Shown piece after piece: positions 43,575-56,449 of a DNA stretch of 64,000 bases. Under the pieces are notes generated by a model. It was given only the letters and a program-made list of their open reading frames with translations. It did no database searches and was not told where the DNA came from. Numbering within the stretch: position 1 is the first letter of the stretch; each line of letters begins with the position of its first letter. Both the position numbers and the translations under genes were made by a program. Source of the DNA: Streptomyces sp. NBC_01463 (GTDB taxonomy: Bacteria; Actinomycetota; Actinomycetes; Streptomycetales; Streptomycetaceae); assembly GCA_036227345.1 (NCBI GenBank), contig CP109468.1, forward strand, positions 7,192,001-7,256,000. The letters are read 5' to 3'.

Positions 43575-44015
43575 CTAAGTGCGGTTGCCGCTCCTCATCG
43601 AGGCGCCCGCGCAGACCAGCCCCAGCAGGACGGTCAGACCGCCGATGATGACGTTGTTGAGCACGACGCCCATGTCCGGGCTGCTGCCCACCACCCAGGG
43701 CGAGATGATCATCCAGGCGCCCATCGCGCAGATGGCCCAGCTCAGGCCGTACATGCGCTGCGGCATCACGGTGAATCCCAGCCCCAGCACGGCGATCGCG
43801 ATACCCATGATCAGGTTGTGCGTCACGAGGGACGACTGGGACGTCGTGAAGTGCAGCACCCAGGGCGATACGGCGCAGTACAGACCGACCAGGAACACCG
43901 GCCCGTCGACGAGCGCCACGTCGCGGCCGCCCATCATCCGGTCGTACCGGTCGCGCATTTCGGAGACGTCGGGGTGTCCGGTCATGTCGTGACCGGTGTG
44001 CGAGACGTTTGACAT
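43575..44015 (-). CDS. SPW-repeat integral membrane protein
   Basis: 146-residue membrane protein from ATG at 44015. After a hydrophilic N-terminus (SNVSHTGHDMTGHPDVSEMRDRYDRMMGGRD) come four hydrophobic helices in two repeats, each containing the SPW signature: YCAVSPWVLHF and WMIISPWVVGSSP. The family is widespread but has no established function. Upstream in-frame starts lack a ribosome site. It is transcribed in the same direction as the ADP-ribosylglycohydrolase 96 bp upstream. Confidence 0.85.
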   Translation of the reverse strand: MSNVSHTGHDMTGHPDVSEMRDRYDRMMGGRDVALVDGPVFLVGLYCAVSPWVLHFTTSQSSLVTHNLIMGIAIAVLGLGFTVMPQRMYGLSWAICAMGAWMIISPWVVGSSPDMGVVLNNVIIGGLTVLLGLVCAGASMRSGNRT

Positions 44016-44111
44016 GGTTCGTCTCCCTTGCTTTCGCAGGCCTGGCCGCCGCTGTGTGCGGCAAGCGACCCGCTCTGCCATTGTGCTCTTATATGCCCCT
44101 TATGTGTAGGT

Positions 44112-46795: not shown

Positions 46796-47446
46796 CTACT
46801 TGGCGGGCATCAGGACCGTGTCGACGATGTAGACCGTCGCGTTGGCGGTCGGGACGTTGCCGCAGACGACCTTCGAGGAGTCGTTCACGGTGTACGTCAT
46901 GTCCGAACCGGACGTCGTCAGCTCGCTCTTCTCCAGGGTGTCGAAGGAGCCCTTCTCCAGCTGCTTCGGCGTCAGCTTCTGGCCCACCACGTGGTAGGTG
47001 AGGACCTTGGTGAGCGCGGCCTTGTCGGCGAGCAGCTTGTCCAGGTCGGCCTTCGGGACCTTGGCGAAGGCGTCGTTGGTCGGGGCGAACACCGTGATGT
47101 TCTGCGCGTTGTTCAGGGTGTCGACCAGGCCGGCCTTCTTGACCGCGGTGACCAGGGTGGACAGCGCCGGGTTGTGCGAGGCGGCCGTGGCGACCGGGTC
47201 CTTCGCCATGCCGTCGAAGGAGCCCGCACCGTTCTTCGGCACCGACGAACAGGCGGGGCCGAAGGGCTGGTCCATGGGCATCGTGTCGCTCGCGGACGCC
47301 GACGCCGGGTCCGAGGCCTTCGCCGAACTGGCCGAGGAGCCGGACGCGCTGTCCTTGGAGTCGCTGGAGCAGGCCGAAAGGGCCAGCGGCAGGACGAACG
47401 CCGCCGAGATGGCGACGGCGGCACGACGCGCGTGGGTGACCTTCAT
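46796..47446 (-). CDS. Fasciclin-domain lipoprotein (MPT83-like)
   Basis: Exported lipoprotein, 216 residues. A basic N-terminus and hydrophobic core end in LSAC with lipidated C26, followed by a Ser/Ala/Asp linker. The single fasciclin domain spans about 85-214, including the family segments NITVFAPTNDAFAKVP and LTYHVVGQKLTPKQL and a terminal VYIVDTVLMPAK. Mycobacterial MPT70/MPT83 have the same design and are targets of SigK. It lies 117 bp downstream of the molybdoenzyme gene on the same strand and could be on the same transcript. Confidence 0.92.
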   Translation of the reverse strand: MKVTHARRAAVAISAAFVLPLALSACSSDSKDSASGSSASSAKASDPASASASDTMPMDQPFGPACSSVPKNGAGSFDGMAKDPVATAASHNPALSTLVTAVKKAGLVDTLNNAQNITVFAPTNDAFAKVPKADLDKLLADKAALTKVLTYHVVGQKLTPKQLEKGSFDTLEKSELTTSGSDMTYTVNDSSKVVCGNVPTANATVYIVDTVLMPAK

Positions 47447-47563
47447 GATGGTTCTCCTGGTTCGTATGGGTGACCGAATGATTACGGTCGGTAAGGGGGT
47501 TGGGCTGTGCGAAACGCTGCTCCTCGCGGAGCGCGTGAGTAAGGGGAGGTGGTGACCGTCCGG

Positions 47564-49192
47564 TCAGGACACGTCGACCACCACCGAGTGCCAGCCCGTC
47601 GCACCGTTGGGTACGGTGCCGACGCGCCGGTCGGTCTGAGTGGCGCCGGTGCGGTCCGTCGCACGGACCTCCAGGGTGTGGTTGCCGGAGGTGGCCGGCC
47701 ACTCCCACACCCACTGGCGCCAGGTGTCACGGCTGTCCTCGGCCGCCAGCTTCGCGGGATTCCACGGGCCGCCGTCCACCCGGACCTCGACCCGCTGGAT
47801 ACCGCGGTGCTGGGCCCAGGCGACCCCGGCGACCGGAATGGTGCCGGCCTTCGGGGAGGCGAAGGGGCGGGGGGTGTCGATCCGGGACTCGGTCTTGATC
47901 GGTGCCTGCTTGGACCAGGAACGCTTGACCCAGTAGGCGTCGTAGTCGTCGAACGTGGTCAGCTCGATGTCCTTGATCCACTTGCAGGCCGAGACGTATC
48001 CGTACAGGCCGGGAACGACCATCCGGACCGGGAAGCCGTGGTCGAAGGGCAGCGGCTCACCGTTCATGCCGAGGGCGAGCAGCGCGTCGCGTCCGTCCAT
48101 GACGTCCTCGACCGGCGTGCCGATCGTCATGCCGTCCACCGAACGCGCCACGATCTGGTCGGCGGGTCCACCGCCGGACGGCGGCTTCACCCCCGCCTCG
48201 CGCAGCAGATCGGCCAGTCGCACACCGATCCATCGCGCGTTGCCGACATACGGTCCGCCCACCTCGTTGGACACGCAGGTCAGAGTGATGTCGCGCTCGA
48301 TGATCTCGCGGCGCAACAGGTCCTGGAAGCTGAGCGTCAGGGGCGTCTTCACGCCCTTGCCGTGGATCCTCAGCCGCCAGTCGTTCGCGTCGATCCGCGG
48401 CACGACCAGCGCCGTGTCCACCCGGTAGAAGCTCTTGTTCGGGGTGACGAACGAGCTCAGCCCCCGGATCTTCAGATCGGCGCCCGCGGGTACGGCGGGC
48501 GCCCGCGAGCCGGGTACGGGCAGCACCAGGTCGTTCCGTGAGGCGGTGGCCCCGGCCTGGACGGCGGAGGTGAGCCGCCGCCCGAGCAGACCGGCACCGG
48601 CCGAGGCGACCGCCGCGGCGCTCGCCGCGATGACGAAGCCCCGCCGGTCGAAGGTGCCGCGGACCGGCTCCCCGTCCCTCCCGCCAGCCGCGGGGGAGGG
48701 GCCGGGAGCCGGAGCCAGCCGTCCGACCAGGAAGTACAGCAGTCCTGCGGCCAGCACGGTACCCACCACCGAGGGCAGGGCGTCGGACGGGCGGCCCTCC
48801 GGCCGCCCGATCGCCGCGACCGCCCCGACCACGCCGAAGACCAGAACGGCCGCCGAACCGATCAGCCGGTGCCGCAGTGCCAGCATCCCGACCGCCACGG
48901 CGAAGACCGCCAGCAGGGCCAGAATCCCGAGCTCCAGGACCAGCTTGTCGTTGGTGCCGAAATGGCGGACCGCGAAGTCCTTCAGCGCCGGGGGAGTGCG
49001 GTCGATCACCGCACCGCCCACCACCGCGACCGGACCCGCCTCGGGACGCACGACCGCCGCCACGAGCTCGGCGACGGCCAGGGCGCAGAACCCGGCGATC
49101 ACACCGCTGAGCGCGGCGCAGGCTGCTCGTGCCCAGCGGGACCGCCGGGACCCGGGGGCCCCGCTCTTCGCTTCGTTCCGATCTTCGCTCAC
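47564..49192 (-). CDS. Membrane-anchored sulfite oxidase-family molybdenum oxidoreductase
   Basis: 542-residue protein. About four N-terminal membrane helices (from residue 20 to 160) precede an exported molybdopterin domain; residues 180-205 (FDRRGFVIAASAAAVASAGAGLLG) look like an internal twin-arginine-like export segment. The molybdenum-ligating cysteine is C306 in TLTCVSNEVGG, with a C-terminal Ig-like dimerisation domain (VEVRVDGGPWNPAKL). Start is GTG at 49192, with a predicted SigK-like promoter so close that the message would be leaderless or nearly so. The substrate may be sulfite or protein methionine sulfoxide; not determinable. Confidence 0.9.
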   Translation of the reverse strand: MSEDRNEAKSGAPGSRRSRWARAACAALSGVIAGFCALAVAELVAAVVRPEAGPVAVVGGAVIDRTPPALKDFAVRHFGTNDKLVLELGILALLAVFAVAVGMLALRHRLIGSAAVLVFGVVGAVAAIGRPEGRPSDALPSVVGTVLAAGLLYFLVGRLAPAPGPSPAAGGRDGEPVRGTFDRRGFVIAASAAAVASAGAGLLGRRLTSAVQAGATASRNDLVLPVPGSRAPAVPAGADLKIRGLSSFVTPNKSFYRVDTALVVPRIDANDWRLRIHGKGVKTPLTLSFQDLLRREIIERDITLTCVSNEVGGPYVGNARWIGVRLADLLREAGVKPPSGGGPADQIVARSVDGMTIGTPVEDVMDGRDALLALGMNGEPLPFDHGFPVRMVVPGLYGYVSACKWIKDIELTTFDDYDAYWVKRSWSKQAPIKTESRIDTPRPFASPKAGTIPVAGVAWAQHRGIQRVEVRVDGGPWNPAKLAAEDSRDTWRQWVWEWPATSGNHTLEVRATDRTGATQTDRRVGTVPNGATGWHSVVVDVS

Positions 49193-49198
49193 AACCGG

Positions 49199-49227
49199 GA
49201 TTCGTGGCCGGTCGGCCCGCGGATTGG
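49199..49227 (-). promoter_or_regulatory. SigK-like promoter of the molybdoenzyme-fasciclin genes
   Basis: On the minus strand: CCAATCC (49227-49221), 16 bp, CGAATC (49204-49199). The same elements and spacing occur upstream of the sigma factor gene and, as CCAATCC-N16-CGAACC, upstream of the lipid operon. The -10 ends only 7 bp from the GTG start codon. Confidence 0.7.
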
Positions 49228-49260
49228 TCTGTCACCCGAACGAATGAGAGTCGGTCCCGG

Positions 49261-49289
49261 CCAATCCGCGGCGCGACCTGTAACGAACC
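49261..49289 (+). promoter_or_regulatory. SigK-like promoter of the lipid-modification operon
   Basis: CCAATCC (49261-49267), 16 bp, CGAACC (49284-49289), about 72 bp upstream of the oxidoreductase ATG. It faces away from the promoter at 49199-49227, so both operons start from one 90-bp region. Confidence 0.7.
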
Positions 49290-49307
49290 ACAGTTGAGAG
49301 GCCTCGC

Positions 49308-49333
49308 CGCTCGCGCGCGTCAGCGCGCGAGCG
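49308..49333 (+). other. Stem-loop in the leader of the lipid-modification operon
   Basis: Perfect 11-bp arms CGCTCGCGCGC and GCGCGCGAGCG with a GTCA loop. It lies between the predicted transcription start and the ribosome site, ending 28 bp before the ATG. It could stabilise the message or affect initiation. Confidence 0.55.
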
Positions 49334-49361
49334 CGGGGCACGGGCAGGCGGAGGGAACGGC

Positions 49362-50636
49362 ATGACAGGCAGGCGGCAACGTACAGCGGTGGTGGGGAGC
49401 GGGGTGGCGGGACTGACCGCCGCGCACATCCTGCGCACGGCCCACGACGTGACGCTGTTCGAGGCGGACGACCGGGTGGGCGGCCACGCGCACACCCACG
49501 ACCTGCCCGCGTCGGACGGCCGCGTCCACCGCGTCGACTCCGGCTTCATCGTGCACAACCGGCGCACCTACCCGCATCTGCTGCGGCTCTTCGCGGAGCT
49601 CGCCGTCCCGACCCAGGAGTCGGAGATGAGCATGTCGGTGCGGTGCGAGGGATGCGGCCTGGAGTACGCGGGTGCCCGCGGCCCGGCCGGTCTGCTCGCC
49701 CGGCCCGCCCAGCTCCGGGACCCCGCCTATCTGCGGATGCTGGCCGCCGTGCCGCGCTTCCACCGGGCCGCCCGCCGCCTCCTGGCCGACGGCGGACCGG
49801 ACGCGGACACGATGACGCTCGGCGAGTTCGCCGCCCGCGGCCGCTTCTCCCCGTACTTCACCGCCCATTTCCTCACCCCCGTGGTCTCCGCGGTCTGGTC
49901 CTGCGACCCGGTGACCGCGATGCTGTACCCCGCCCGCTACCTCTTCCGCTTCCTCGACCACCACGGGATGCTCGCGGTCGGCGGCTCCCCGGTGTGGCGG
50001 ACGGTCACCGGCGGTTCGGGCGCCTACGTCGAACGGGTCACCAAGCAGCTCGCCGCCGTCCGCACCGCGACCCCGGTCCGTGCCGTGCGCCGGCACGCGG
50101 ACGGCGTCGACCTCGTCACCGCCGACGACACCACCGAGGCGTTCGACTCCGTCGTCATCGCCACCCACCCCGACCAGGCGCTGCGCATCCTCGCCGACCC
50201 GACGGACGAGGAACGCCGCACCCTGGGCGCCTTCCGCTACTCCCGCAACCCCACCCTGCTGCACACCGACACCCGGCTGCTGCCGAGCGCCCGCGGCGCC
50301 CGCGCCTCCTGGAACTACCTGATGCCGGACTGCTCGGCCGACGCCCGGCACGTCACCGTCAGCTACGACATGAACCGGCTCCAGCGGCTCGACGCCCCCG
50401 AGACCTTCGTCGTCACCCTGAACGGCGCCGACCGCGTCGCCCCCGGCCTCGTCCGCGCCCGCATGGTCTACGAACACCCCGTCTTCACCCCGGAGTCGGT
50501 GGCCGCGCAGGCCCGGCTGCCCGCCCTGTCCGGCCCGGTCACCGCCTACGCGGGGGCGTACCACGGCTGGGGATTCCACGAGGACGGCTGCCGCTCGGGG
50601 GCCGAGGCCGCCGCCGCCCTGGGGGTGGACTGGTGA
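49362..50636 (+). CDS. FAD-dependent amine-oxidase-like oxidoreductase (Rv0449c-like)
   Basis: 424-residue flavoprotein with the dinucleotide motif GSGVAG at 12-17 (VVGSGVAGLTAAHILR) and the FAD-binding FEADDRVGGHAHTH. The family regularly precedes DUF1365 and cyclopropane fatty acid synthase genes; in 10-methyl fatty acid synthesis a flavin enzyme reduces the methylene intermediate made by the methyltransferase, a possible role here. First gene of a five-gene operon with four-base overlaps. A GGAGGGAA ribosome site precedes the ATG. Confidence 0.88.
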   Translation: MTGRRQRTAVVGSGVAGLTAAHILRTAHDVTLFEADDRVGGHAHTHDLPASDGRVHRVDSGFIVHNRRTYPHLLRLFAELAVPTQESEMSMSVRCEGCGLEYAGARGPAGLLARPAQLRDPAYLRMLAAVPRFHRAARRLLADGGPDADTMTLGEFAARGRFSPYFTAHFLTPVVSAVWSCDPVTAMLYPARYLFRFLDHHGMLAVGGSPVWRTVTGGSGAYVERVTKQLAAVRTATPVRAVRRHADGVDLVTADDTTEAFDSVVIATHPDQALRILADPTDEERRTLGAFRYSRNPTLLHTDTRLLPSARGARASWNYLMPDCSADARHVTVSYDMNRLQRLDAPETFVVTLNGADRVAPGLVRARMVYEHPVFTPESVAAQARLPALSGPVTAYAGAYHGWGFHEDGCRSGAEAAAALGVDW

Positions 50637-51355
50637 ACGCCCTCTACCCCTGCACCATCGCCCACGTACGGAGTGCGCCGGGCAAGTACGCGTTCCGGCA
50701 CCGCACCTACCTGTGGCTGATCGACCCGGACGGGCCGCCACCGCTGCCCGCGGCCCTGCGCCTGCTGGCGGGTTTCGACCCGCGCGACCACTTCGGCGGC
50801 ACGGCCCCGACCATCCGGGACGGACTGAGCCGCTTCCTGGCCGCGAACGGCGTCGACCTCGCCGACGGCAGCGTGCGGATGCTCACCCAGGCCCGGGTGT
50901 TCGGCCACGTCTTCAACCCGCTGACCGTCTACTGGTGCCGCCGCGCGGACGGCAGCCCGCTCTGCACGGTCGCCGAGGTGCACAACACGTACGGCGAACG
51001 CCACTGCTACCTGCTGCGCCCGGACGCCGACGGCCGGGCGTCCACCGGCAAGGACTTCTACGTCTCGCCGTTCTTCGACGTGACCGGCTCCTACCGGATG
51101 CGGCTCCCCGAGCCGGGGCCCCGGCTCGACCTGACGGTGCACCTGGAACGGGCCGGCATCCGGCCCTTCACCGCCACGGTCCGCGGAGTGCGCCGCCCGG
51201 TCACCCCGCGCGCCCTGCTCCGGCTGGCGCTGCTCCACCCCTGGTCCACCGCCGTCGTCTCGGCCGCCATCCGGCTGCACGGCATCCGCCTGCTGCTGCG
51301 CGGACTGCCCGTACAGCCCCGTCCCCACCACCGCCCCCAGGAAGGAATGCAGTGA
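50633..51355 (+). CDS. DUF1365 family protein
   Basis: 240-residue protein of unknown biochemical function. GTG at 50633 overlaps the stop of the oxidoreductase by four bases. Family features: YPCTIAHVRSAPGKYAFRHRTYLWLIDPD at the N-terminus, LTQARVFGHVFNPLTVYWC, and YVSPFFDVTGSYRM. It is always found with the flavoprotein and methyltransferase partners, so a shared role in fatty acyl modification is inferred, but no reaction is known. Confidence 0.9.
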   Translation: MNALYPCTIAHVRSAPGKYAFRHRTYLWLIDPDGPPPLPAALRLLAGFDPRDHFGGTAPTIRDGLSRFLAANGVDLADGSVRMLTQARVFGHVFNPLTVYWCRRADGSPLCTVAEVHNTYGERHCYLLRPDADGRASTGKDFYVSPFFDVTGSYRMRLPEPGPRLDLTVHLERAGIRPFTATVRGVRRPVTPRALLRLALLHPWSTAVVSAAIRLHGIRLLLRGLPVQPRPHHRPQEGMQ

Positions 51356-52641
51356 GCGTGTCCACGTCCCACTCCCCGTCCCCCTCCACCTCGCCCCCGG
51401 TGCACGCCACCGCGGACATCGACCCCGGGCGCTGGCCCGATGTCGTGCGGCCGCCGCGCGGCTCAAGGCTGCGGACCCTCATCGCCGAACGGCTCGTCCG
51501 CCATGCCCTGGACCGCCTCCCGCTCCGGGTCCGGCTCGCCGGACGCGAGGACCTCGGCCTCGGCGGCCCGCTGATGGACGTACGCGACCCCGCCACGTTC
51601 TTCCGCAGAATCGGCGTCGACGGACTGATCGGCTTCGGCGAGTCCTACATGGCGGGGGAGTGGGACTCACCCGACCCGGTGGGCGTGCTGACCGTCCTCG
51701 CCGACCAGGTCGCCACCCTGATCCCGCAGCCCCTCCAGCGGCTGCGGGGCGTCTGGGCCCGCCGCCGCCCCGCCGGACAGCTCGGCACCCGTGAGGGCGC
51801 CCGCGACAACATCAGCCACCACTACGACCTGTCCAACGAGCTCTTCGCGCTCTTCCTCGACGAGACGCTCAGCTACTCCTCCGCGATCTTCCGCGGCTTC
51901 CCCGCCGAGCACGCCCTGCTGCCCGCCGCCCAGCACCGCAAGATCGACCGGCTGCTCGACCTCACCGAGGTCGGGCCCGGCACCCAGCTCCTGGAGATCG
52001 GCACGGGCTGGGGCGAACTCGCGATCCGGGCCGCCGCCCGCGGCGCCCGCGTCGTCTCCGTCACCCTCTCGCGCGAGCAGCAGGAACTGGCCCGCCGCCG
52101 GATCAGGGACGCCGGGTTCGAGGACCGTGTCGAGGTCCGGCTCAGCGACTACCGGGACGTCGAGGGCGAGTACGACGCGATCATCAGCGTCGAGATGATC
52201 GAGGCGGTCGGCGCCGAGTTCTGGCCGGTCTACTTCCGCACCCTGGAGGAGCGGCTCGCCCCCGGCGGCAGGATCGCCCTCCAGGCCATCACCATGCCGG
52301 ACGACCGGCTGCGCGCCGGCGGGAGCACCTACACCTGGATCCAGAAGTACATCTTCCCCGGCGGACTCCTCCCGTCCGTCGAGGCCGTCGGACAGGTCAC
52401 CGCCGAGCACACCGGCCTGCGCGTCGAGCGCTGCGACGACTTCGGCACCCACTACGCCGAGACCCTGCGGCTGTGGCGGGAACGCTTCACCGAACGGACC
52501 GACGACGTCGACGCGCTCGGCTTCGACGCCACCTTCCGCCGGATGTGGACCTTCTACCTGGCCTACTCCGAAGCGGGATTCCGCTCCGGCTACCTCCATG
52601 TGCAGCAGATGCTGCTGACCCGTCAGGAAACAGCGCGATGA
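51352..52641 (+). CDS. Cyclopropane/methyl fatty acid synthase-like methyltransferase, copy 1
   Basis: 429-residue SAM-dependent methyltransferase of the CfaA/UfaA1 class, starting with GTG at 51352 (four-base overlap). Features: NISHHYDLSNELFALFLDETLSYSSAIF, SAM-binding LLEIGTGWGELAIRAA, then VSVEMIEAVGAEFWPVYF and YIFPGGLLPSVEAV. An extra N-terminal region of about 110 residues precedes the catalytic domain. Acts on unsaturated phospholipid acyl chains, adding a methylene/methyl carbon. Differs clearly in sequence from copy 2 immediately downstream. Confidence 0.9.
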   Translation: MSVSTSHSPSPSTSPPVHATADIDPGRWPDVVRPPRGSRLRTLIAERLVRHALDRLPLRVRLAGREDLGLGGPLMDVRDPATFFRRIGVDGLIGFGESYMAGEWDSPDPVGVLTVLADQVATLIPQPLQRLRGVWARRRPAGQLGTREGARDNISHHYDLSNELFALFLDETLSYSSAIFRGFPAEHALLPAAQHRKIDRLLDLTEVGPGTQLLEIGTGWGELAIRAAARGARVVSVTLSREQQELARRRIRDAGFEDRVEVRLSDYRDVEGEYDAIISVEMIEAVGAEFWPVYFRTLEERLAPGGRIALQAITMPDDRLRAGGSTYTWIQKYIFPGGLLPSVEAVGQVTAEHTGLRVERCDDFGTHYAETLRLWRERFTERTDDVDALGFDATFRRMWTFYLAYSEAGFRSGYLHVQQMLLTRQETAR

Positions 52642-54008
52642 CACTCACGGCCAAGCAGACCGCCGCCCCCGGCGCTGCGCAACGCCTCGAACCGCTCGTC
52701 GAGCAGCTGCTCGGCGGCGAACTGCCGGTCAGGGTACGGATGTGGGACGGCAGCGAGACCGGCGCCCCCGACGGGCCCCTGGTCCACGTCCGCTCCCGCC
52801 GCGCACTGCGCCGGCTCCTGTGGGCCCCGGGCGAACTCGGCCTCGCCGAGGCCTACATCACCGGGGACATCGACATCGAAGGTGATCTCGCCACCGGTCT
52901 GCGGGCGATGCGCCACGCGGTGCGCGAACGCGGACTGCGCCCGCCGAGCCCCGGTGCCGGCGGCCGGCTGCGGGCGCTGGGCACCGCGCTGCGGCTGGGC
53001 GCCGTCGGCCCCCGGCCACCGGTACCCGCCGCCCGCGCCGGACTCCACGGCGTGCTGCACAGCAAGGCCCGCGACCGGGCCGCCGTCAGCCACCACTACG
53101 ACCTCTCCAACGCCTTCTACGCGCTGCTCCTCGACGAGACGATGGCCTACTCCTGCGGCTACTGGACCAGTGACGCCCCCGGTTACGGCCCCGCGGACGC
53201 GCAGCGCGACAAGCTCGAACTGATCTGCCGCAAGCTGGGACTGCGTCCGGGCGCCCGGCTGCTGGACATCGGCTGCGGCTGGGGATCGCTCACGCTGTAC
53301 GCCGCGCAGCGGCACGGCGTCCGCGTCACCGCGGTCACCCTCGCCCGGGAACAGGCGGCGTACGTCCGCCACCAGGTGGCCGAACGGAACCTGGAGGACC
53401 TCGTCGAGGTCCGCTGCTGCGACTACCGCGACATCGCCCCGGCGCCGGGCCACGAGGGCGGGTACGACGCGGTGTCCACCATCGAGATGGGCGAGCACGT
53501 CGGGGACGAGCAGTACCCGGCCTTCGCCGGGACGCTGCACGCCATGGTGCGGCCGCGCGGCCGGGTGCTCGTCCAGCAGATGTCACGCGGGCGCGACGCC
53601 CCGGGCGGCGGCGCGTTCATCGAGTCGTACATCGCGCCCGACATGCACATGCGCCCGCTCGGCGAGACGGTGACGCTGCTGGAGGGCGCCGGCCTCGAAG
53701 TGCGTGACGTCGAGGGGCTGCGCGAGCACTACGTGCGGACCGTCGACGCGTGGCGGCGCACCCTGGAGGAGAACCACCAGGAGTTCACGGACCTCGTCGG
53801 CGAGGAGACCGTGCGGGTGTGGCGGCTCTACCTGGCAGGCGGCGCCCTGGCGTTCGACGAACGGCGGATGGGCGTGGACCAGATCCTCTCCGTACGGCCG
53901 GAGACGACCGGTGCGGCCGGGATGCCGGACACCCGCAACGGCTGGTACGCGGCTTCGGCCGAGGTGCCGGCCGCGCGTGACGGGGCGACGGCCGGACTCG
54001 CGGAATGA
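52638..54008 (+). CDS. Cyclopropane/methyl fatty acid synthase-like methyltransferase, copy 2
   Basis: 456-residue paralogue from ATG at 52638, overlapping copy 1 by four bases. Features: AVSHHYDLSNAFYALLLDETMAYSCGYW, SAM motif LLDIGCGWGSLTLYAA, and VSTIEMGEHVGDEQYPAF in place of the VEMIEAVG of copy 1. Copy 2 has the cysteine-containing GCGWG that is usual in CFA synthases, while copy 1 has GTGWG. The two tandem enzymes may use different acyl positions or form a heteromer; which reaction each does is not determinable. Confidence 0.9.
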   Translation: MTLTAKQTAAPGAAQRLEPLVEQLLGGELPVRVRMWDGSETGAPDGPLVHVRSRRALRRLLWAPGELGLAEAYITGDIDIEGDLATGLRAMRHAVRERGLRPPSPGAGGRLRALGTALRLGAVGPRPPVPAARAGLHGVLHSKARDRAAVSHHYDLSNAFYALLLDETMAYSCGYWTSDAPGYGPADAQRDKLELICRKLGLRPGARLLDIGCGWGSLTLYAAQRHGVRVTAVTLAREQAAYVRHQVAERNLEDLVEVRCCDYRDIAPAPGHEGGYDAVSTIEMGEHVGDEQYPAFAGTLHAMVRPRGRVLVQQMSRGRDAPGGGAFIESYIAPDMHMRPLGETVTLLEGAGLEVRDVEGLREHYVRTVDAWRRTLEENHQEFTDLVGEETVRVWRLYLAGGALAFDERRMGVDQILSVRPETTGAAGMPDTRNGWYAASAEVPAARDGATAGLAE

Positions 54009-54808
54009 GCGGCTTCGCATGGGCGGCGTTCGCACAGGGCCTGCTGCCCTGTGCGGGCGCCGCCCTGGCCGTCATGCTCGCGACGTTCGCCGTCGCCCTG
54101 CGCATGGGTGTGCACCGGGTCGTGGACGTCGCCTGGGGCCTGGGCTTCACCGCCGTGGCCCTCGTCTCGTACGCAGCGTCGGCCGGCGACGGGGACGGCA
54201 CCCGCCGGCTCCTGGTCACCGTGCTCACCGCCGTGTGGGGGCTGCGCCTGGCCTGGCACATCGCCCGGCGGGGCAGGGGGCACGGCGAGGACCCGCGGTA
54301 CGCGGCGATGCTCGCCAGGGCGCCGGGCGACCCGCGGCTGTACGCCCTGCGGAAGGTGTACCTGCTCCAGGGCGCCCTGGTCTGGCTGATCTCGCTCCCG
54401 GTGCAGGCGGCCGGGTACCTGACGGGACCGGCCGGCGCGTGGGCCTGGGCCGGTGCGGGCGTGTGGGCGGTGGGGCTGGTCTTCGAAGCGGTGGGGGACC
54501 GCCAGCTGGCCCGGTTCAAGACAGACCCGGCGAACCGCGGGAAGATCATGGACCGCGGACTGTGGTCCTGGACCCGGCATCCGAACTACTTCGGCGACTT
54601 CTGCGTGTGGTGGGGCCTGTTCCTGATCGTGTGCCCGGCGCCCGGCGCGGCCGCCGCCACCCTGGTGGCACCCGTCCTGATGAGCTTCCTGCTCATCGGC
54701 GGCAGCGGAAAGGCGCTCCTGGAACGGCACATGGCCGAGCGCCCCGGCTTCGCCGCGTACAGGGACCGGACCAGCGGGTTCTTCCCGCGCCCGCCGCGCC
54801 GCGGCTGA
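54005..54808 (+). CDS. DUF1295 membrane protein (steroid 5-alpha-reductase-like)
   Basis: 267-residue integral membrane protein with about seven hydrophobic helices and the family motif WSWTRHPNYFGDFCVWWGLFL near the C-terminus. DUF1295 proteins are related to isoprenylcysteine methyltransferases and 5-alpha-reductases, so a SAM- or NADPH-dependent step on a lipid is plausible. ATG at 54005 overlaps the previous stop (ATGA). It is the last gene of the operon and converges with the anti-sigma factor gene. Confidence 0.9.
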   Translation: MSGFAWAAFAQGLLPCAGAALAVMLATFAVALRMGVHRVVDVAWGLGFTAVALVSYAASAGDGDGTRRLLVTVLTAVWGLRLAWHIARRGRGHGEDPRYAAMLARAPGDPRLYALRKVYLLQGALVWLISLPVQAAGYLTGPAGAWAWAGAGVWAVGLVFEAVGDRQLARFKTDPANRGKIMDRGLWSWTRHPNYFGDFCVWWGLFLIVCPAPGAAAATLVAPVLMSFLLIGGSGKALLERHMAERPGFAAYRDRTSGFFPRPPRRG

Positions 54809-55023
54809 GCCGCCCGCCGGGAGGGAGCCAGTGTGCCCCGTACCCCGGCCGCCTCCCAACGGCCGAAGTACGGGGTGGACACCGCGAAATGGCCACGGCC
54901 CACCGGGACGACCCGACCCGGGGCGAGCGCGTGCGGCCACTGCGTCAGGGGCCCGGACGAGCGACTGCGCCGGTCACCAACGGGTGCCCGGCGCAGCCGT
55001 CGCTCATGCGGCGGGGCGCTCGC
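54809..55023. other. Convergent intergenic spacer without a gene
   Basis: 215 bp between the convergent DUF1295 and anti-sigma genes. Only short GC-rich inverted repeats were seen (for example GCGGC-TGA-GCCGC at the left end). No coding frame with convincing codon bias. Confidence 0.5.
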
Positions 55024-55800
55024 TCATGCCGACGGAAGGTTCATCAGGGCCAGCGGGGCCGAGGTCGGCTGCGCCGATCCGCCCGCCGGCTCGACGGTGA
55101 CACCCATGCCGGTCGCCTGGTCCACCGGGCCGTCGAGCAGGCTGGCGTACGTCGTCGGCGAGGTGCCCGACGCCTGCATCAGACCGGCGGAGCGCATCGT
55201 GCCGTCGTCGTCGAACCACAGCTGGTAGACCTTGCCCGCGGGCGCCTCGGCGAGTCCCGAGGCGAGGAACACGGCGCGGTTCTGGCTCTTGGACACCACG
55301 ACCGTGCCCTTCCCGCCGTCCTCCAGGGACCCGGACCGGGTCTGTGCGTCGGGTGCGGCGAGGACCTGCGCGAGCTGGTCGCTCTCCTGCTGGGCGGCGC
55401 GGGAGTCCTGCCGGGCCTCCTGTGCCTCCTGGTTCTGCCACACCGCGATCCCGCCGAAGCCGGCGGCGGCGGCCAGGCTCGCGGCGAGCGCGAACTTCGG
55501 CCACCGGGACGTGCGGCTCGCGGTGGTACGGCCGGCGCTCGTGGTGCGGGCGCGGTGGCCGCCGGACGGCGGCTCCTGGCGCACGGTCGCGATCTCCTGC
55601 AGCACCCGCTCGCGCAGTTCCCGCGGCGGTGCGGCCGAGACGGCGAGCCCGAGCCGGGTCGCGGTCTCCGAGAGCTCGCGCACCTCGACGGAGCAGGCCT
55701 CGCAGTCGCCCAGGTGGCGTTCGAACTCCCGGCGTTCGGAGTCCGGCAGCGCGTGCAGGGCGTAGGCCCCGGTCATCGTGTGCAGTCCGGCGTCGCTCAT
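55024..55800 (-). CDS. rskA: Anti-sigma-K factor RskA-like, membrane-bound
   Basis: 258-residue regulator. N-terminal zinc-binding anti-sigma motif H29-x3-C33-x2-C36 (RHLGDCEAC), a transmembrane helix at about 103-121 (FALAASLAAAAGFGGIAVW), then an exported RskA domain (VYQLWFDDDGTMRSAGLMQ). It would hold the sigma factor at the membrane until regulated proteolysis releases it. Start overlaps the sigma factor stop by four bases (ATGA), giving stoichiometric translation. Synteny with the mycobacterial sigK-rskA pair supports the name. Confidence 0.93.
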   Translation of the reverse strand: MSDAGLHTMTGAYALHALPDSERREFERHLGDCEACSVEVRELSETATRLGLAVSAAPPRELRERVLQEIATVRQEPPSGGHRARTTSAGRTTASRTSRWPKFALAASLAAAAGFGGIAVWQNQEAQEARQDSRAAQQESDQLAQVLAAPDAQTRSGSLEDGGKGTVVVSKSQNRAVFLASGLAEAPAGKVYQLWFDDDGTMRSAGLMQASGTSPTTYASLLDGPVDQATGMGVTVEPAGGSAQPTSAPLALMNLPSA

Positions 55801-56381
55801 GCGCTCACCCCGAGGCAGTCGCGCAGCCGGATCAGTCCGTCGCGCAGTCGAGTCTTGATGGTTCCCAGCGGTGTCGCGAGCAGCTCTGCCACTTCGCGAT
55901 AGGTCAGTCCGCGGTAGTACGCGAGGGTGACGGACTCGCGCTGGAGTTCGGACAGGGTCCGCATGCAGCGGCGGACCTGTTCCCGCTCCAGCCGGCTCTC
56001 CACCTGTTCGGTGACGTCGTCGAAGGCGGGGGTGCGGTCGAGCAGCGCCGCCTTGTGCTCACGGGCCGTTGTCGCCTCGACCGAGCGCACCCGGTCCACC
56101 GCCCGGTGGTGGGCCAGCGTCAGCACCCAGTTCATGGCGCTCCCGCGGGCGGCCCGGAAGCGCGGCGCCGTGCGCCACACCTCGACCAGTACCTCCTGCG
56201 CGACCTCCTCCGACTGGGCGGGATCGCGCAGGACGCTGCGCACCAGACCGAGCACCGGCCCGCAGACGGCCTCGTACACCTGCGCGAACGCATCCTGATC
56301 GCCCCGGGCGACCATCCCCAGGAGCTCCTGGAGATCGGGCCCCGCCGAGGCCAATCCGCTGATGTGCACGGCTTCTTTCAC
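55797..56381 (-). CDS. sigK: ECF RNA polymerase sigma factor SigK-like
   Basis: 194-residue sigma-70 family factor with only regions 2 and 4. Region 2 spans about 40-110 (DPAQSEEVAQEVLVEVWRTAPRF and WVLTLAHHRAVDRVRS), region 4 about 135-190 (LSELQRESVTLAYYRGLTYREVAELLATPLGTIKTRLRDGL). Paired with the anti-sigma gene downstream. Its own promoter candidate, CCAATCC-N16-CGAATC, lies at 56421-56449 and matches those of the neighbouring operons, so it probably autoregulates. The nearby fasciclin and lipid genes resemble the mycobacterial SigK targets. Confidence 0.93.
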   Translation of the reverse strand: MKEAVHISGLASAGPDLQELLGMVARGDQDAFAQVYEAVCGPVLGLVRSVLRDPAQSEEVAQEVLVEVWRTAPRFRAARGSAMNWVLTLAHHRAVDRVRSVEATTAREHKAALLDRTPAFDDVTEQVESRLEREQVRRCMRTLSELQRESVTLAYYRGLTYREVAELLATPLGTIKTRLRDGLIRLRDCLGVSA

Positions 56382-56420
56382 GCGGGCTTCCTTCCGGGAT
56401 GCTCATCGGTCTCCACGGGT

Positions 56421-56449
56421 GATTCGGAGCCGGTGACGGTGCGGATTGG
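56421..56449 (-). promoter_or_regulatory. SigK-like autoregulated promoter of sigK-rskA
   Basis: On the minus strand: CCAATCC (56449-56443), 16 bp, CGAATC (56426-56421), about 40 bp upstream of the ATG. Elements and spacing are identical to the promoter of the molybdoenzyme operon. This is the third copy in 7.3 kb. Confidence 0.7.

What the first reader, a model, noticed from the sequence alone, without database searches (positions are those of the whole stretch)
46796..56449. Self-contained SigK-type regulon with three spacing-matched promoters
A SigK/RskA-like pair, a fasciclin lipoprotein, a molybdoenzyme and a methyl-fatty-acid operon are contiguous. In Mycobacterium tuberculosis the equivalent genes (sigK, rskA, the DUF1295, UfaA1, DUF1365, flavoprotein cluster and the MPT70/83 fasciclins) belong to the SigK regulon, though the fasciclins lie elsewhere. 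I read CCAATCC-N16-CGAATC upstream of sigK and of the molybdoenzyme gene, and CCAATCC-N16-CGAACC upstream of the lipid operon, all with exactly 16 bp between elements; they resemble the mycobacterial SigK consensus as I remember it. This predicts one signal switching membrane lipid methylation and an exported redox enzyme.
Basis: partly seen in the sequence, partly recalled or inferred. Interest (0 to 1): 0.8.

Follow-up and report, generated by a model that had tools for sequence, protein, structure and literature searches.

The report
SigK switch for photo-oxidative lipid defence
In a Streptomyces-type genome, three gene groups lying side by side and a fourth far away start with the same two-part promoter sequence, so one regulator (SigK) is predicted to switch them on together; several of the genes match those that unrelated bacteria use against light-generated singlet oxygen, so this is likely the same defence, which would include making protective membrane fatty acids, run by a different switch.

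Summary
CCAATCC-N16-CGAAYC stands exactly in front of sigK-rskA, the molybdoenzyme-fasciclin pair and the lipid operon (no exact match in 100 shuffles). Genome-wide there are 5 exact matches: these three, one before a second, secreted fasciclin 1.55 Mb away, and one without a clear target; so the regulon has four promoters and is not self-contained. Boxes and spacer are conserved in most related loci. The lipid operon's first three genes are homologues, in the same order, of UfaD, UfaO (DUF1365) and UfaM, the furan-fatty-acid enzymes of alphaproteobacteria, which there belong with a fasciclin and a photolyase to the singlet-oxygen regulon of RpoE-ChrR. In nine alphaproteobacterial plasmid loci ufaD and ufaO lie near rpoE-chrR, usually behind an RpoE-type and never a SigK-type promoter. 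In 20 of 80 Streptomyces-group loci a photolyase or light-regulator homologue lies by the cluster. Most likely SigK-RskA is an actinobacterial counterpart of RpoE-ChrR; stimulus and furan product are inferred, not shown. SigK sites across Actinobacteria and a fasciclin-sigK-rskA cassette are already in print; the Ufa/ChrR parallel I did not find in print. Interest 0.63, new variant of a known kind.

The parts
46796..47446 (-). Fasciclin lipoprotein (MPT83-like): lipobox LSAC, one FAS1 domain
   Evidence: Pfam Fasciclin 117.5 bits; MPT70 structure 1nyo matched over residues 62-214, E 2e-32; N-terminus MKVTHARRAAVAISAAFVLPLALSAC
47564..49192 (-). Membrane-anchored molybdoenzyme of the sulfite-oxidase fold family: four hydrophobic segments, then a DRRGF twin-arginine-like motif with a fifth, then the molybdopterin domain
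   Evidence: Pfam Oxidored_molyb; NCBIfam SorA/SoxC/SorT/MsrP all far below cut-off; closest solved chain 2blf, sulfite:cytochrome c oxidoreductase; hydropathy
49199..49227 (-). SigK-type promoter of the molybdoenzyme-fasciclin pair; GTG start 6 nt after the -10 box, so probably a leaderless transcript
49261..49289 (+). SigK-type promoter of the lipid operon, back to back with the previous one
49362..50636 (+). ufaD-like NAD/FAD oxidoreductase
   Evidence: Pfam Amino_oxidase, NAD_binding_8; 44% identical over 414 aa to the flavoprotein beside rpoE-chrR in Mesorhizobium
50633..51355 (+). ufaO-like DUF1365 protein; predicted mainly beta barrel
   Evidence: Pfam DUF1365 221.6 bits; 32% to the Mesorhizobium homologue; invariant residues; model pLDDT 89.8
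51352..52641 (+). ufaM-like SAM-dependent fatty-acyl methyltransferase (CMAS family); GTG start overlaps the ufaO stop codon
   Evidence: Pfam CMAS; start codon; 40% over 346 aa to the UfaM-position protein of the Mesorhizobium operon, 27% to its other CFA protein
52638..54008 (+). Second CMAS-family methyltransferase, role unknown
   Evidence: Pfam CMAS; best NCBIfam CfaB, below cut-off
54005..54808 (+). DUF1295 membrane protein, last gene of the operon
   Evidence: Pfam DUF1295; 33% to the DUF1295 protein of the Mesorhizobium cluster
55024..55800 (-). RskA-type anti-sigma factor, one hydrophobic segment at 103-122
   Evidence: Pfam RskA_N, RskA_C, zf-HC2; NCBIfam anti-sigma over cut-off
55797..56381 (-). 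SigK, ECF sigma factor, with both conserved cysteines (C139, C189)
   Evidence: PRK09646 over cut-off; aligned to 4nqw; only one match at E<=1e-20 in the genome
56421..56449 (-). SigK-type promoter of sigK-rskA (predicted autoregulation)

Best explanation
Three neighbouring gene groups and one distant fasciclin gene carry the same two-box promoter, so they are predicted to be switched on together by SigK once RskA releases it, likely in answer to photo-oxidative (singlet-oxygen) stress, and the lipid operon would then turn membrane unsaturated fatty acids into methylated, probably furan, fatty acids. Shown here: the four promoter matches, the conservation of three of them with a 16-bp spacer, the homology and order of ufaD-ufaO-ufaM, and the exchange of sigma/anti-sigma pair and promoter type between phyla. 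Reported elsewhere (papers seen in passages): in Rhodobacter and Rhodopseudomonas UfaM methylates vaccenate, UfaD desaturates the product, UfaO with O2 closes the furan ring; these genes, a fasciclin and a photolyase are RpoE-ChrR targets induced by photo-oxidative stress, and furan-fatty-acid synthesis is part of the feedback that frees RpoE. Inferred: that the Streptomyces enzymes do the same chemistry; that SigK-RskA takes the place of RpoE-ChrR and closes the same loop (stress, release of SigK, more SigK and more scavenger lipid); that the exported molybdoenzyme repairs or detoxifies oxidised sulfur outside the membrane; and that the lipoprotein and secreted fasciclins (MPT83- and MPT70-like) act at the envelope, perhaps as carriers of hydrophobic antioxidants.
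For: Promoters: 3 in window, 0/100 shuffles; 5 genome-wide, 4 in front of this gene group. Conservation at spacer 16 with <=2 mismatches: sigK 49/55, molybdoenzyme 30/38, ufaD 63/79, fasciclin 9/48 against 2/55, 1/38, 3/79, 0/48 for the reversed sequence; other spacers give far fewer, at most 9/38 (spacer 17, molybdoenzyme). Outside the family, in 5 of 7 loci of the class (L101, L140, L149, L150, L196; not L136, L142) a SigK-type site with 1-2 mismatches stands 6-31 nt before the lead gene, mostly as CCCATCC-N16-CGAAT(A/G). Homology to a ChrR-linked cluster: UfaD 44%, UfaO 32%, UfaM 40%, fasciclin 41%, DUF1295 33%, molybdoenzyme 26%; this one Mesorhizobium plasmid has ufaD-ufaO-ufaM, fasciclin, msrPQ, DUF1295 and a second CFA gene around rpoE-chrR. 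All 9 alphaproteobacterial plasmid loci fetched have an ECF gene and a ChrR-type gene near ufaD and ufaO, with a UfaM homologue in 7; RpoE-type promoter in front of ufaD 7/9 and rpoE 8/9, SigK-type 0/18, reversed control 0/18. Streptomyces relatives: photolyase 18/80, LitR homologue 10/80, LitS homologue 9/80, any of them 20/80, including rskA-phr on one strand within 2.5 kb in 10 loci; the 9-Mb own genome has one photolyase. R. sphaeroides genes listed as RpoE regulon with rise under photo-oxidative stress: rpoE, chrR, RSP_2144 (cfaS, the UfaM gene), phrA, RSP_1091, RSP_1090, fasciclin RSP_1409; R. capsulatus has a SigK-RskA-like pair, rpoE induced log2 3.7 (PMC7074977, passages and Table 1). 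Light raises the M. kansasii fasciclins mpk83/mpk70 (PMC9861118, passages). UfaD/O/M functions: PMC7380195 (abstract and passages); feedback: PMC6852236 (passages).
Against: No expression or lipid data. The window genome's single photolyase (C1:8375261) has no exact or one-mismatch motif, and no LitR homologue was found in it, so the light link comes from relatives, and 60 of 80 related loci show none of the three light genes in the fetched stretch (16 of the 80 stretches are shorter than 20 kb). In the phylum sample 16 of 22 DUF1365 regions show none of the regulators I queried. Fasciclin plus msrPQ beside ChrR occurs in 1 of 9 alphaproteobacterial loci. The molybdoenzyme is not MsrP by score. 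The CMAS proteins score below the NCBIfam equivalog cut-offs, so cyclopropane or 10-methyl products are not excluded; M. tuberculosis UfaA1 is reported to make 10-methylstearate in vitro (PMC5660069, passages). The Ufa sequences of R. sphaeroides/R. palustris themselves were not held and not compared. SigK carries the redox cysteines, which point to thiol chemistry. In M. kansasii dipZ, a presumed SigK target, was not light-regulated, and in the passages seen only the two fasciclins of that regulon were. The distant fasciclin's exact promoter is not general: of 30 fasciclin loci of the genus 6 have a site with <=2 mismatches, reversed control 1.
Confidence: 0.6

Rival explanations
1. The regulon is as described, but its signal is thiol/disulfide redox change rather than photo-oxidation: the two SigK cysteines and RskA sense redox state and the molybdoenzyme handles oxidised sulfur.
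For: Both cysteines (C139, C189) are conserved and align with cysteines of SigK 4nqw; PMC7509140 (passages) reports them in 94% of ECF18 and 56% of ECF19 and ties them to RskA; the closest solved molybdoenzymes are sulfite oxidases.
Against: It does not explain the gene set shared with the singlet-oxygen regulon, nor photolyase and LitR/LitS homologues by the cluster in 20 of 80 relatives.
Confidence: 0.2
2. The lipid operon makes 10-methyl-branched (tuberculostearic-type) or cyclopropane fatty acids as an envelope adaptation; the DUF1365 protein and the flavoprotein act as reductase or accessory, and no furan is made.
Against: The same paper notes that unidentified E. coli proteins may have done the reduction in the UfaA1 assay and itself pairs another methyltransferase with a FAD-binding oxidoreductase; the one role I found shown for DUF1365 proteins is furan closure (PMC7380195, passages), and the window's DUF1365 keeps the residues that are invariant across SigK- and ChrR-linked copies (H11, R13, D52, R88, N118, T119, K140).
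Confidence: 0.25
3. The promoter is recognised by SigK-like sigma factors in general, so the groups may be driven by more than one sigma factor and need not form one regulon.
For: Of 31 exact-motif loci examined in the genus, 23 lie at this cluster or at another SigK-like or ECF/anti-sigma gene group (one of these, L171, without an ECF gene in the stretch), 18 of them not this cluster.
Against: In this genome only one protein matches SigK at E<=1e-20 and all but one of the five exact copies serve this gene group.
Confidence: 0.1
4. The motif matches are chance.
For: 8 of 31 exact matches examined in the genus have no fitting gene, so a background exists.
Against: 0 of 100 shuffles; position and spacer conserved in most of 80 loci.
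Confidence: 0.01

Closest known systems
Mycobacterial SigK-RskA regulon (sigK, rskA, lipid genes, MPT70/MPT83) and the mpt83-sigK-rskA cassette
   Same: SigK and RskA families, flavoprotein-DUF1365-CMAS-DUF1295 order, a lipid-anchored and a secreted fasciclin, SigK-type promoter with 16-bp spacer. PMC7509140 (passages) already says that SigK sites are highly conserved among Actinobacteria and that an mpt83-sigK-rskA cassette exists even in Gram-negatives
   Different: -35 box CCAATCC where the Rhodococcus, Tsukamurella and two unnamed loci have CCCATCC; sigK has its own promoter and is convergent with the lipid operon; a molybdoenzyme and a second CMAS gene belong to it
RpoE-ChrR (ECF11) singlet-oxygen regulon of R. 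sphaeroides and relatives
   Same: ufaD, ufaO, ufaM homologues, fasciclin; a molybdoenzyme, DUF1295 and a second CFA gene in the Mesorhizobium case
   Different: Anti-sigma factor is RskA type, not ChrR; promoter is CCAATCC-N16-CGAAYC, not TGATC-N-CGTA; photolyase not in this genome's predicted regulon
Furan-fatty-acid pathway UfaM-UfaD-UfaO (R. sphaeroides, R. palustris)
   Same: Three homologous genes in the order ufaD-ufaO-ufaM, as locus tags RPA2571-2570-2569
   Different: Product unknown; second methyltransferase and DUF1295 added in the same operon
LitR/LitS light-response genes of Streptomyces (names recalled)
   Same: Homologues lie next to sigK or ufaD in some Streptomyces
   Different: No LitR homologue found in this genome

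Membership tests
SigK-RskA (ECF18/19) system | Sigma factor scores over the curated SigK model | tested here: met
   PRK09646 286.7 bits, cut-off 226
SigK-RskA (ECF18/19) system | Overlapping anti-sigma gene with RskA domains and a membrane segment | tested here: met
   RskA_N, RskA_C, hydrophobic segment 103-122, 4-nt overlap with sigK (coordinates)
SigK-RskA (ECF18/19) system | Two conserved cysteines of SigK | tested here: met
   C139 and C189 align with cysteines of 4nqw
SigK-RskA (ECF18/19) system | SigK drives the promoters, RskA restrains it | not testable with these tools
   needs mutants and RNA
Furan-fatty-acid pathway (UfaM-UfaD-UfaO) | DUF1365 (UfaO) and NAD/FAD protein (UfaD) adjacent, SAM methylase (UfaM) in the same operon | tested here: met
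   same order as the R. palustris locus tags
Furan-fatty-acid pathway (UfaM-UfaD-UfaO) | Sequence relation to the tested R. sphaeroides/R. palustris enzymes themselves | not tested
   those sequences were not held; homologues beside rpoE-chrR were used instead
Furan-fatty-acid pathway (UfaM-UfaD-UfaO) | UfaM methylates without making cyclopropane | tested here: inconclusive
   40% to the UfaM-position protein, 27% to the other CFA protein; below the equivalog cut-offs
Furan-fatty-acid pathway (UfaM-UfaD-UfaO) | Furan acyl chains in the lipids | not testable with these tools
   needs GC-MS
RpoE-ChrR (ECF11) singlet-oxygen system | ChrR-type anti-sigma factor | tested here: not met
   No ChrR model among its NCBIfam matches at E<=0.001; the Mesorhizobium one passes TIGR02451
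RpoE-ChrR (ECF11) singlet-oxygen system | RpoE-type promoter in front of ufaD and the sigma gene | tested here: not met
   None in the window's three upstream regions; 2/80 and 0/56 in Streptomyces relatives; 7/9 and 8/9 in alphaproteobacteria
RpoE-ChrR (ECF11) singlet-oxygen system | Photolyase in the regulon | tested here: not met
   Own photolyase has no exact or one-mismatch motif; in 10 relatives phr follows rskA on the same strand
MsrP methionine-sulfoxide reductase | Score over the MsrP model; MsrQ partner | tested here: not met
   43.4 bits, cut-off 207; no MsrQ match in the window
SorA/SoxC sulfite dehydrogenase | Score over the equivalog models | tested here: not met
   124.3 of 600 and 114.7 of 420 bits

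The most novel reading that the evidence does not exclude
SigK-RskA is the actinobacterial singlet-oxygen switch: distant phyla run one and the same defence cassette (furan-fatty-acid enzymes, fasciclins, exported molybdoenzyme, photolyase) from different sigma/anti-sigma pairs, and the furan fatty acids are both scavenger and messenger. The MPT70/MPT83-type fasciclins would then be envelope carriers or guards of hydrophobic antioxidants, like the photo-oxidation-induced carotenoid-binding fasciclins of algae, and the mycobacterial antigens would be part of a photo/lipid-oxidation defence.
Probability: 0.4. Interest if true: 0.85.

Novelty: new variant of a known kind. Interest (0 to 1): 0.63.

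Why it matters
The stimulus of SigK-RskA is called obscure in print (PMC9861118, passages), and what MPT70/MPT83 and UfaA1 with its neighbours do is, as far as I know, open. Recognising the same genes in the singlet-oxygen regulon of alphaproteobacteria, with the sigma pair and the promoter exchanged, gives a stimulus and a product that can be tested in a harmless Streptomyces. It would also be a clear example of a stress regulon kept while its master regulator and its promoter were replaced. In the held papers I searched I did not find the link: PMC6852236 has no occurrence of SigK, Mycobacterium or Actinobacteria, PMC7380195 none of Actinobacteria; the nearest remark is that the R. capsulatus pair resembles SigK-RskA (PMC7074977). 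Most subscription papers, among them Veyrier 2008, Dufour 2008 and Lemke 2014, were not held, so it may be in print there.
Full report
What was checked. With two mismatches allowed the pattern is not rarer than chance (3 observed, 3.07 expected), so the strength lies in exactness, position and conservation.

Genome-wide. Five exact matches exist. Four stand in front of genes of this group: sigK-rskA, molybdoenzyme-fasciclin, lipid operon, and at C1:8799807-8799835 a second fasciclin gene (C1:8799109-8799687, 119 nt downstream), 1.55 Mb away. The fifth has no clear target. The 12 one-mismatch loci and the fifth exact one hold no relative of the cluster proteins. The local fasciclin has a lipobox (LSAC), the distant one a cleavable-type signal sequence; the local one matches the MPT70 structure 1nyo over residues 62-214. 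PMC7509140 (passages) says MPT83 has a lipid anchor and is the ancestral copy; the pair here looks alike.

Conservation. One scan with the DUF1365 protein found 388 relatives, of which the best 80 were kept as loci; their titles are Streptomyces and close relatives. With up to two mismatches at spacer 16 the motif is in front of sigK in 49 of 55, of the molybdoenzyme in 30 of 38, of ufaD in 63 of 79 and of the fasciclin in 9 of 48 (often second gene behind the molybdoenzyme); the reversed sequences give 2, 1, 3 and 0; other spacers give at most 9 of 38 (spacer 17, molybdoenzyme). The 16 inner bases vary while the boxes stay. In the window and the 6 relatives with an exact site there, the molybdoenzyme start lies 6-9 nt after the -10 box, which suggests a leaderless transcript. 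Of 7 loci of the class outside the family, 5 have a SigK-type site with 1-2 mismatches before the lead gene (L101 Rhodococcus, L196 Tsukamurella, unnamed L140, L149, L150; not L136, L142); in four of them it reads CCCATCC-N16-CGAAT(A/G) and the start codon follows after 6 nt.

The motif belongs to SigK-type sigma factors in general. In 41 genomes of the genus there are 38 exact matches in 22 genomes and none of the reversed pattern. Of 31 of these loci examined (L001, L005, L161-L189), 5 are this cluster or its fasciclin, 10 stand in front of an anti-sigma gene behind another ECF gene, 7 in front of a secreted protein of about 487 aa (next to a SigK-RskA pair in 6 of 7), 1 near another RskA-like gene, and 8 have no fitting gene. 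That SigK sites are highly conserved among Actinobacteria is already stated in PMC7509140, citing Veyrier 2008 (passages; the cited paper was not held).

What the lipid operon is. The genes overlap by 4 bases throughout (coordinates and start codons). The first three are a NAD/FAD protein, a DUF1365 protein and a CMAS-type methyltransferase. In PMC7380195 (abstract and passages) UfaM methylates vaccenate, UfaD, a NAD/FAD protein, desaturates the product, and UfaO, a DUF1365 protein, forms the furan with oxygen from O2; in R. palustris the three have consecutive locus tags (RPA2569-2571). The window proteins are 44%, 32% and 40% identical to the flavoprotein, DUF1365 and methyltransferase of a Mesorhizobium plasmid operon that lies divergent to rpoE-chrR. 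That plasmid also holds a fasciclin, msrP-msrQ, DUF1295 and a second CFA gene: nearly the window's gene list around a different sigma pair.

The regulator is exchanged, and the promoter with it. All 9 alphaproteobacterial plasmid loci fetched (L098, L099, L100, L102, L103, L192-L195) have an ECF gene and a ChrR-type gene near ufaD and ufaO; a UfaM homologue was found in 7. In front of ufaD an RpoE-type site (TGATY, 16-19 bases, then YRWA; loosened from TGATC-N18-CGTAT in PMC5241685, passages) is found in 7 of 9 and in front of rpoE in 8 of 9; SigK-type sites 0 of 18, reversed control 0 of 18. In Streptomyces the RpoE-type site is found in 2 of 80 ufaD and 0 of 56 sigK regions, and in none of the window's three. 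Salinivibrio has MerR-phrB ahead of the operon; one Streptomyces plasmid has SigK-RskA, another a MerR gene, Tsukamurella SigK-RskA with a lipocalin gene, a Rhodococcus plasmid no annotated regulator in the fetched stretch. A tree of the joined UfaD-UfaO-UfaM proteins of 49 loci largely follows taxonomy, with SigK-, LitR- and ChrR-linked members in different places (support values were not looked at and no test was made). Proteobacterial relatives of the fasciclin lie beside an ECF gene and an anti-sigma gene in 6 of 7 loci fetched; the anti-sigma has the RskA_C domain in 5 of 5 tested, while the 5 ECF proteins tested are below the SigK cut-off, three of them above that of another sigma model, PRK12514. 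Such a fasciclin-sigK-rskA cassette in Gram-negatives is known (PMC7509140, passages).

The light connection. In R. sphaeroides the RpoE regulon table lists rpoE, chrR, cfaS (RSP_2144, the UfaM gene), phrA, RSP_1091 and RSP_1090 (UfaD, UfaO), and the fasciclin RSP_1409, all up under photo-oxidative stress; the R. capsulatus pair that takes this place is closer to M. tuberculosis SigK-RskA and is induced (PMC7074977, passages and Table 1). Singlet oxygen promotes destruction of furan fatty acids, and the enzymes that make them are needed for ChrR turnover (PMC6852236, passages). In the 80 Streptomyces-group loci a photolyase homologue lies within the fetched stretch in 18, a LitR homologue in 10, a LitS homologue in 9, any in 20; rskA-phr on one strand in 10, LitS next to sigK in 5, LitS/LitR next to ufaD in 3. 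These are three arrangements, not one inherited block, though within each the loci are related. The own genome has one photolyase, elsewhere, and no LitR hit. In M. kansasii light raises mpk83 and mpk70 but not dipZ (PMC9861118, passages). UV lowers RskA in a high-altitude actinobacterium (PMC8965627, passages).

Against a simple story. In a phylum sample 26 of 198 genomes have DUF1365; of 22 regions looked at in this sample (L130-L151), 19 have the UfaD homologue beside it, 4 have SigK/RskA, 2 LitR, and 16 none of the regulators queried (some stretches are cut by contig ends). So the Ufa operon has other, unseen regulators. The redox cysteines of SigK are present. The methyltransferases cannot be told from cyclopropane or 10-methyl enzymes by score, and UfaA1 has been reported to make 10-methylstearate in vitro, a result on which PMC5660069 casts some doubt (passages).

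Other parts. The molybdoenzyme is a sulfite-oxidase-fold protein with four hydrophobic segments before a DRRGF motif and a fifth after it, so its active domain is probably outside the membrane; it is neither SorA, SoxC nor MsrP by curated score. Of 30 fasciclin loci of the genus read (the tool's best 30, own distant one included), 17 have the molybdoenzyme and 7 a SigK-RskA pair within the stretch of about 3.5 kb, 1 UfaD; 6 of 30 have a SigK-type site with <=2 mismatches ahead, reversed control 1. Among solved relatives of the fasciclin are carotenoid-binding algal proteins (8c18, 9wm8), described as photo-oxidative-stress-inducible (PMC7477208, PMC10147662; search listing only); this is the basis for the carrier idea, which is speculation. 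UfaO is predicted as a mainly beta, barrel-like protein with weak likeness to small lipid-binding-type barrels.

Verdict. The best reading is a SigK-RskA counterpart of the RpoE-ChrR singlet-oxygen regulon with furan-fatty-acid genes; the co-regulation is well supported by sequence, the stimulus and the product are predictions.

Noticed in passing
L163-L167, L169, L182, L184, L187, L189: In other Streptomyces the same promoter stands between another ECF gene and its anti-sigma gene (protein start MRSLERHRDV), 104-111 nt ahead of the anti-sigma start.
   Followed up: partly
L168, L170, L171, L172, L173, L183, L186: The same promoter stands in front of a secreted protein of about 487 aa (recalled label DUF4331, not scanned), next to a SigK-RskA paralogue in 6 of 7: a second type of SigK regulon.
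   Followed up: no
L196 11047-11643; L193 12796-13323; L205 11207-12274: Lipocalin-type genes occur in the Tsukamurella sigK operon, in an Ensifer ChrR cluster and near an Agrobacterium fasciclin, possibly one more shared member.
   Followed up: no
window 43575-44081 (-) and L053 7954-8394 (-): A small membrane-type protein near the cluster (GGRDVALVDGPVFL...) has a look-alike next to ufaD in L053 (seen by eye).
   Followed up: no
L206 3644-7224: Leisingera plasmid: DUF4394, ECF, RskA_C anti-sigma, fasciclin and a methionine-(R)-sulfoxide reductase in a row.
   Followed up: no
L118 / L142: The DUF1365 frame of one same-class genome (G207) contains a TGA; left as it is.
   Followed up: no
G000:C1:1208805-1210534: Two adjacent SQS_PSY genes in the own genome; such pairs are often hopanoid genes (recalled), so carotenoid synthesis may be missing here.
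   Followed up: no
L101 5024-5052 (+): A Rhodococcus plasmid without sigK in the fetched stretch keeps CCCATCC-N16-CGAATG 6 nt ahead of a hydrolase gene that leads its ufaD operon.
   Followed up: partly
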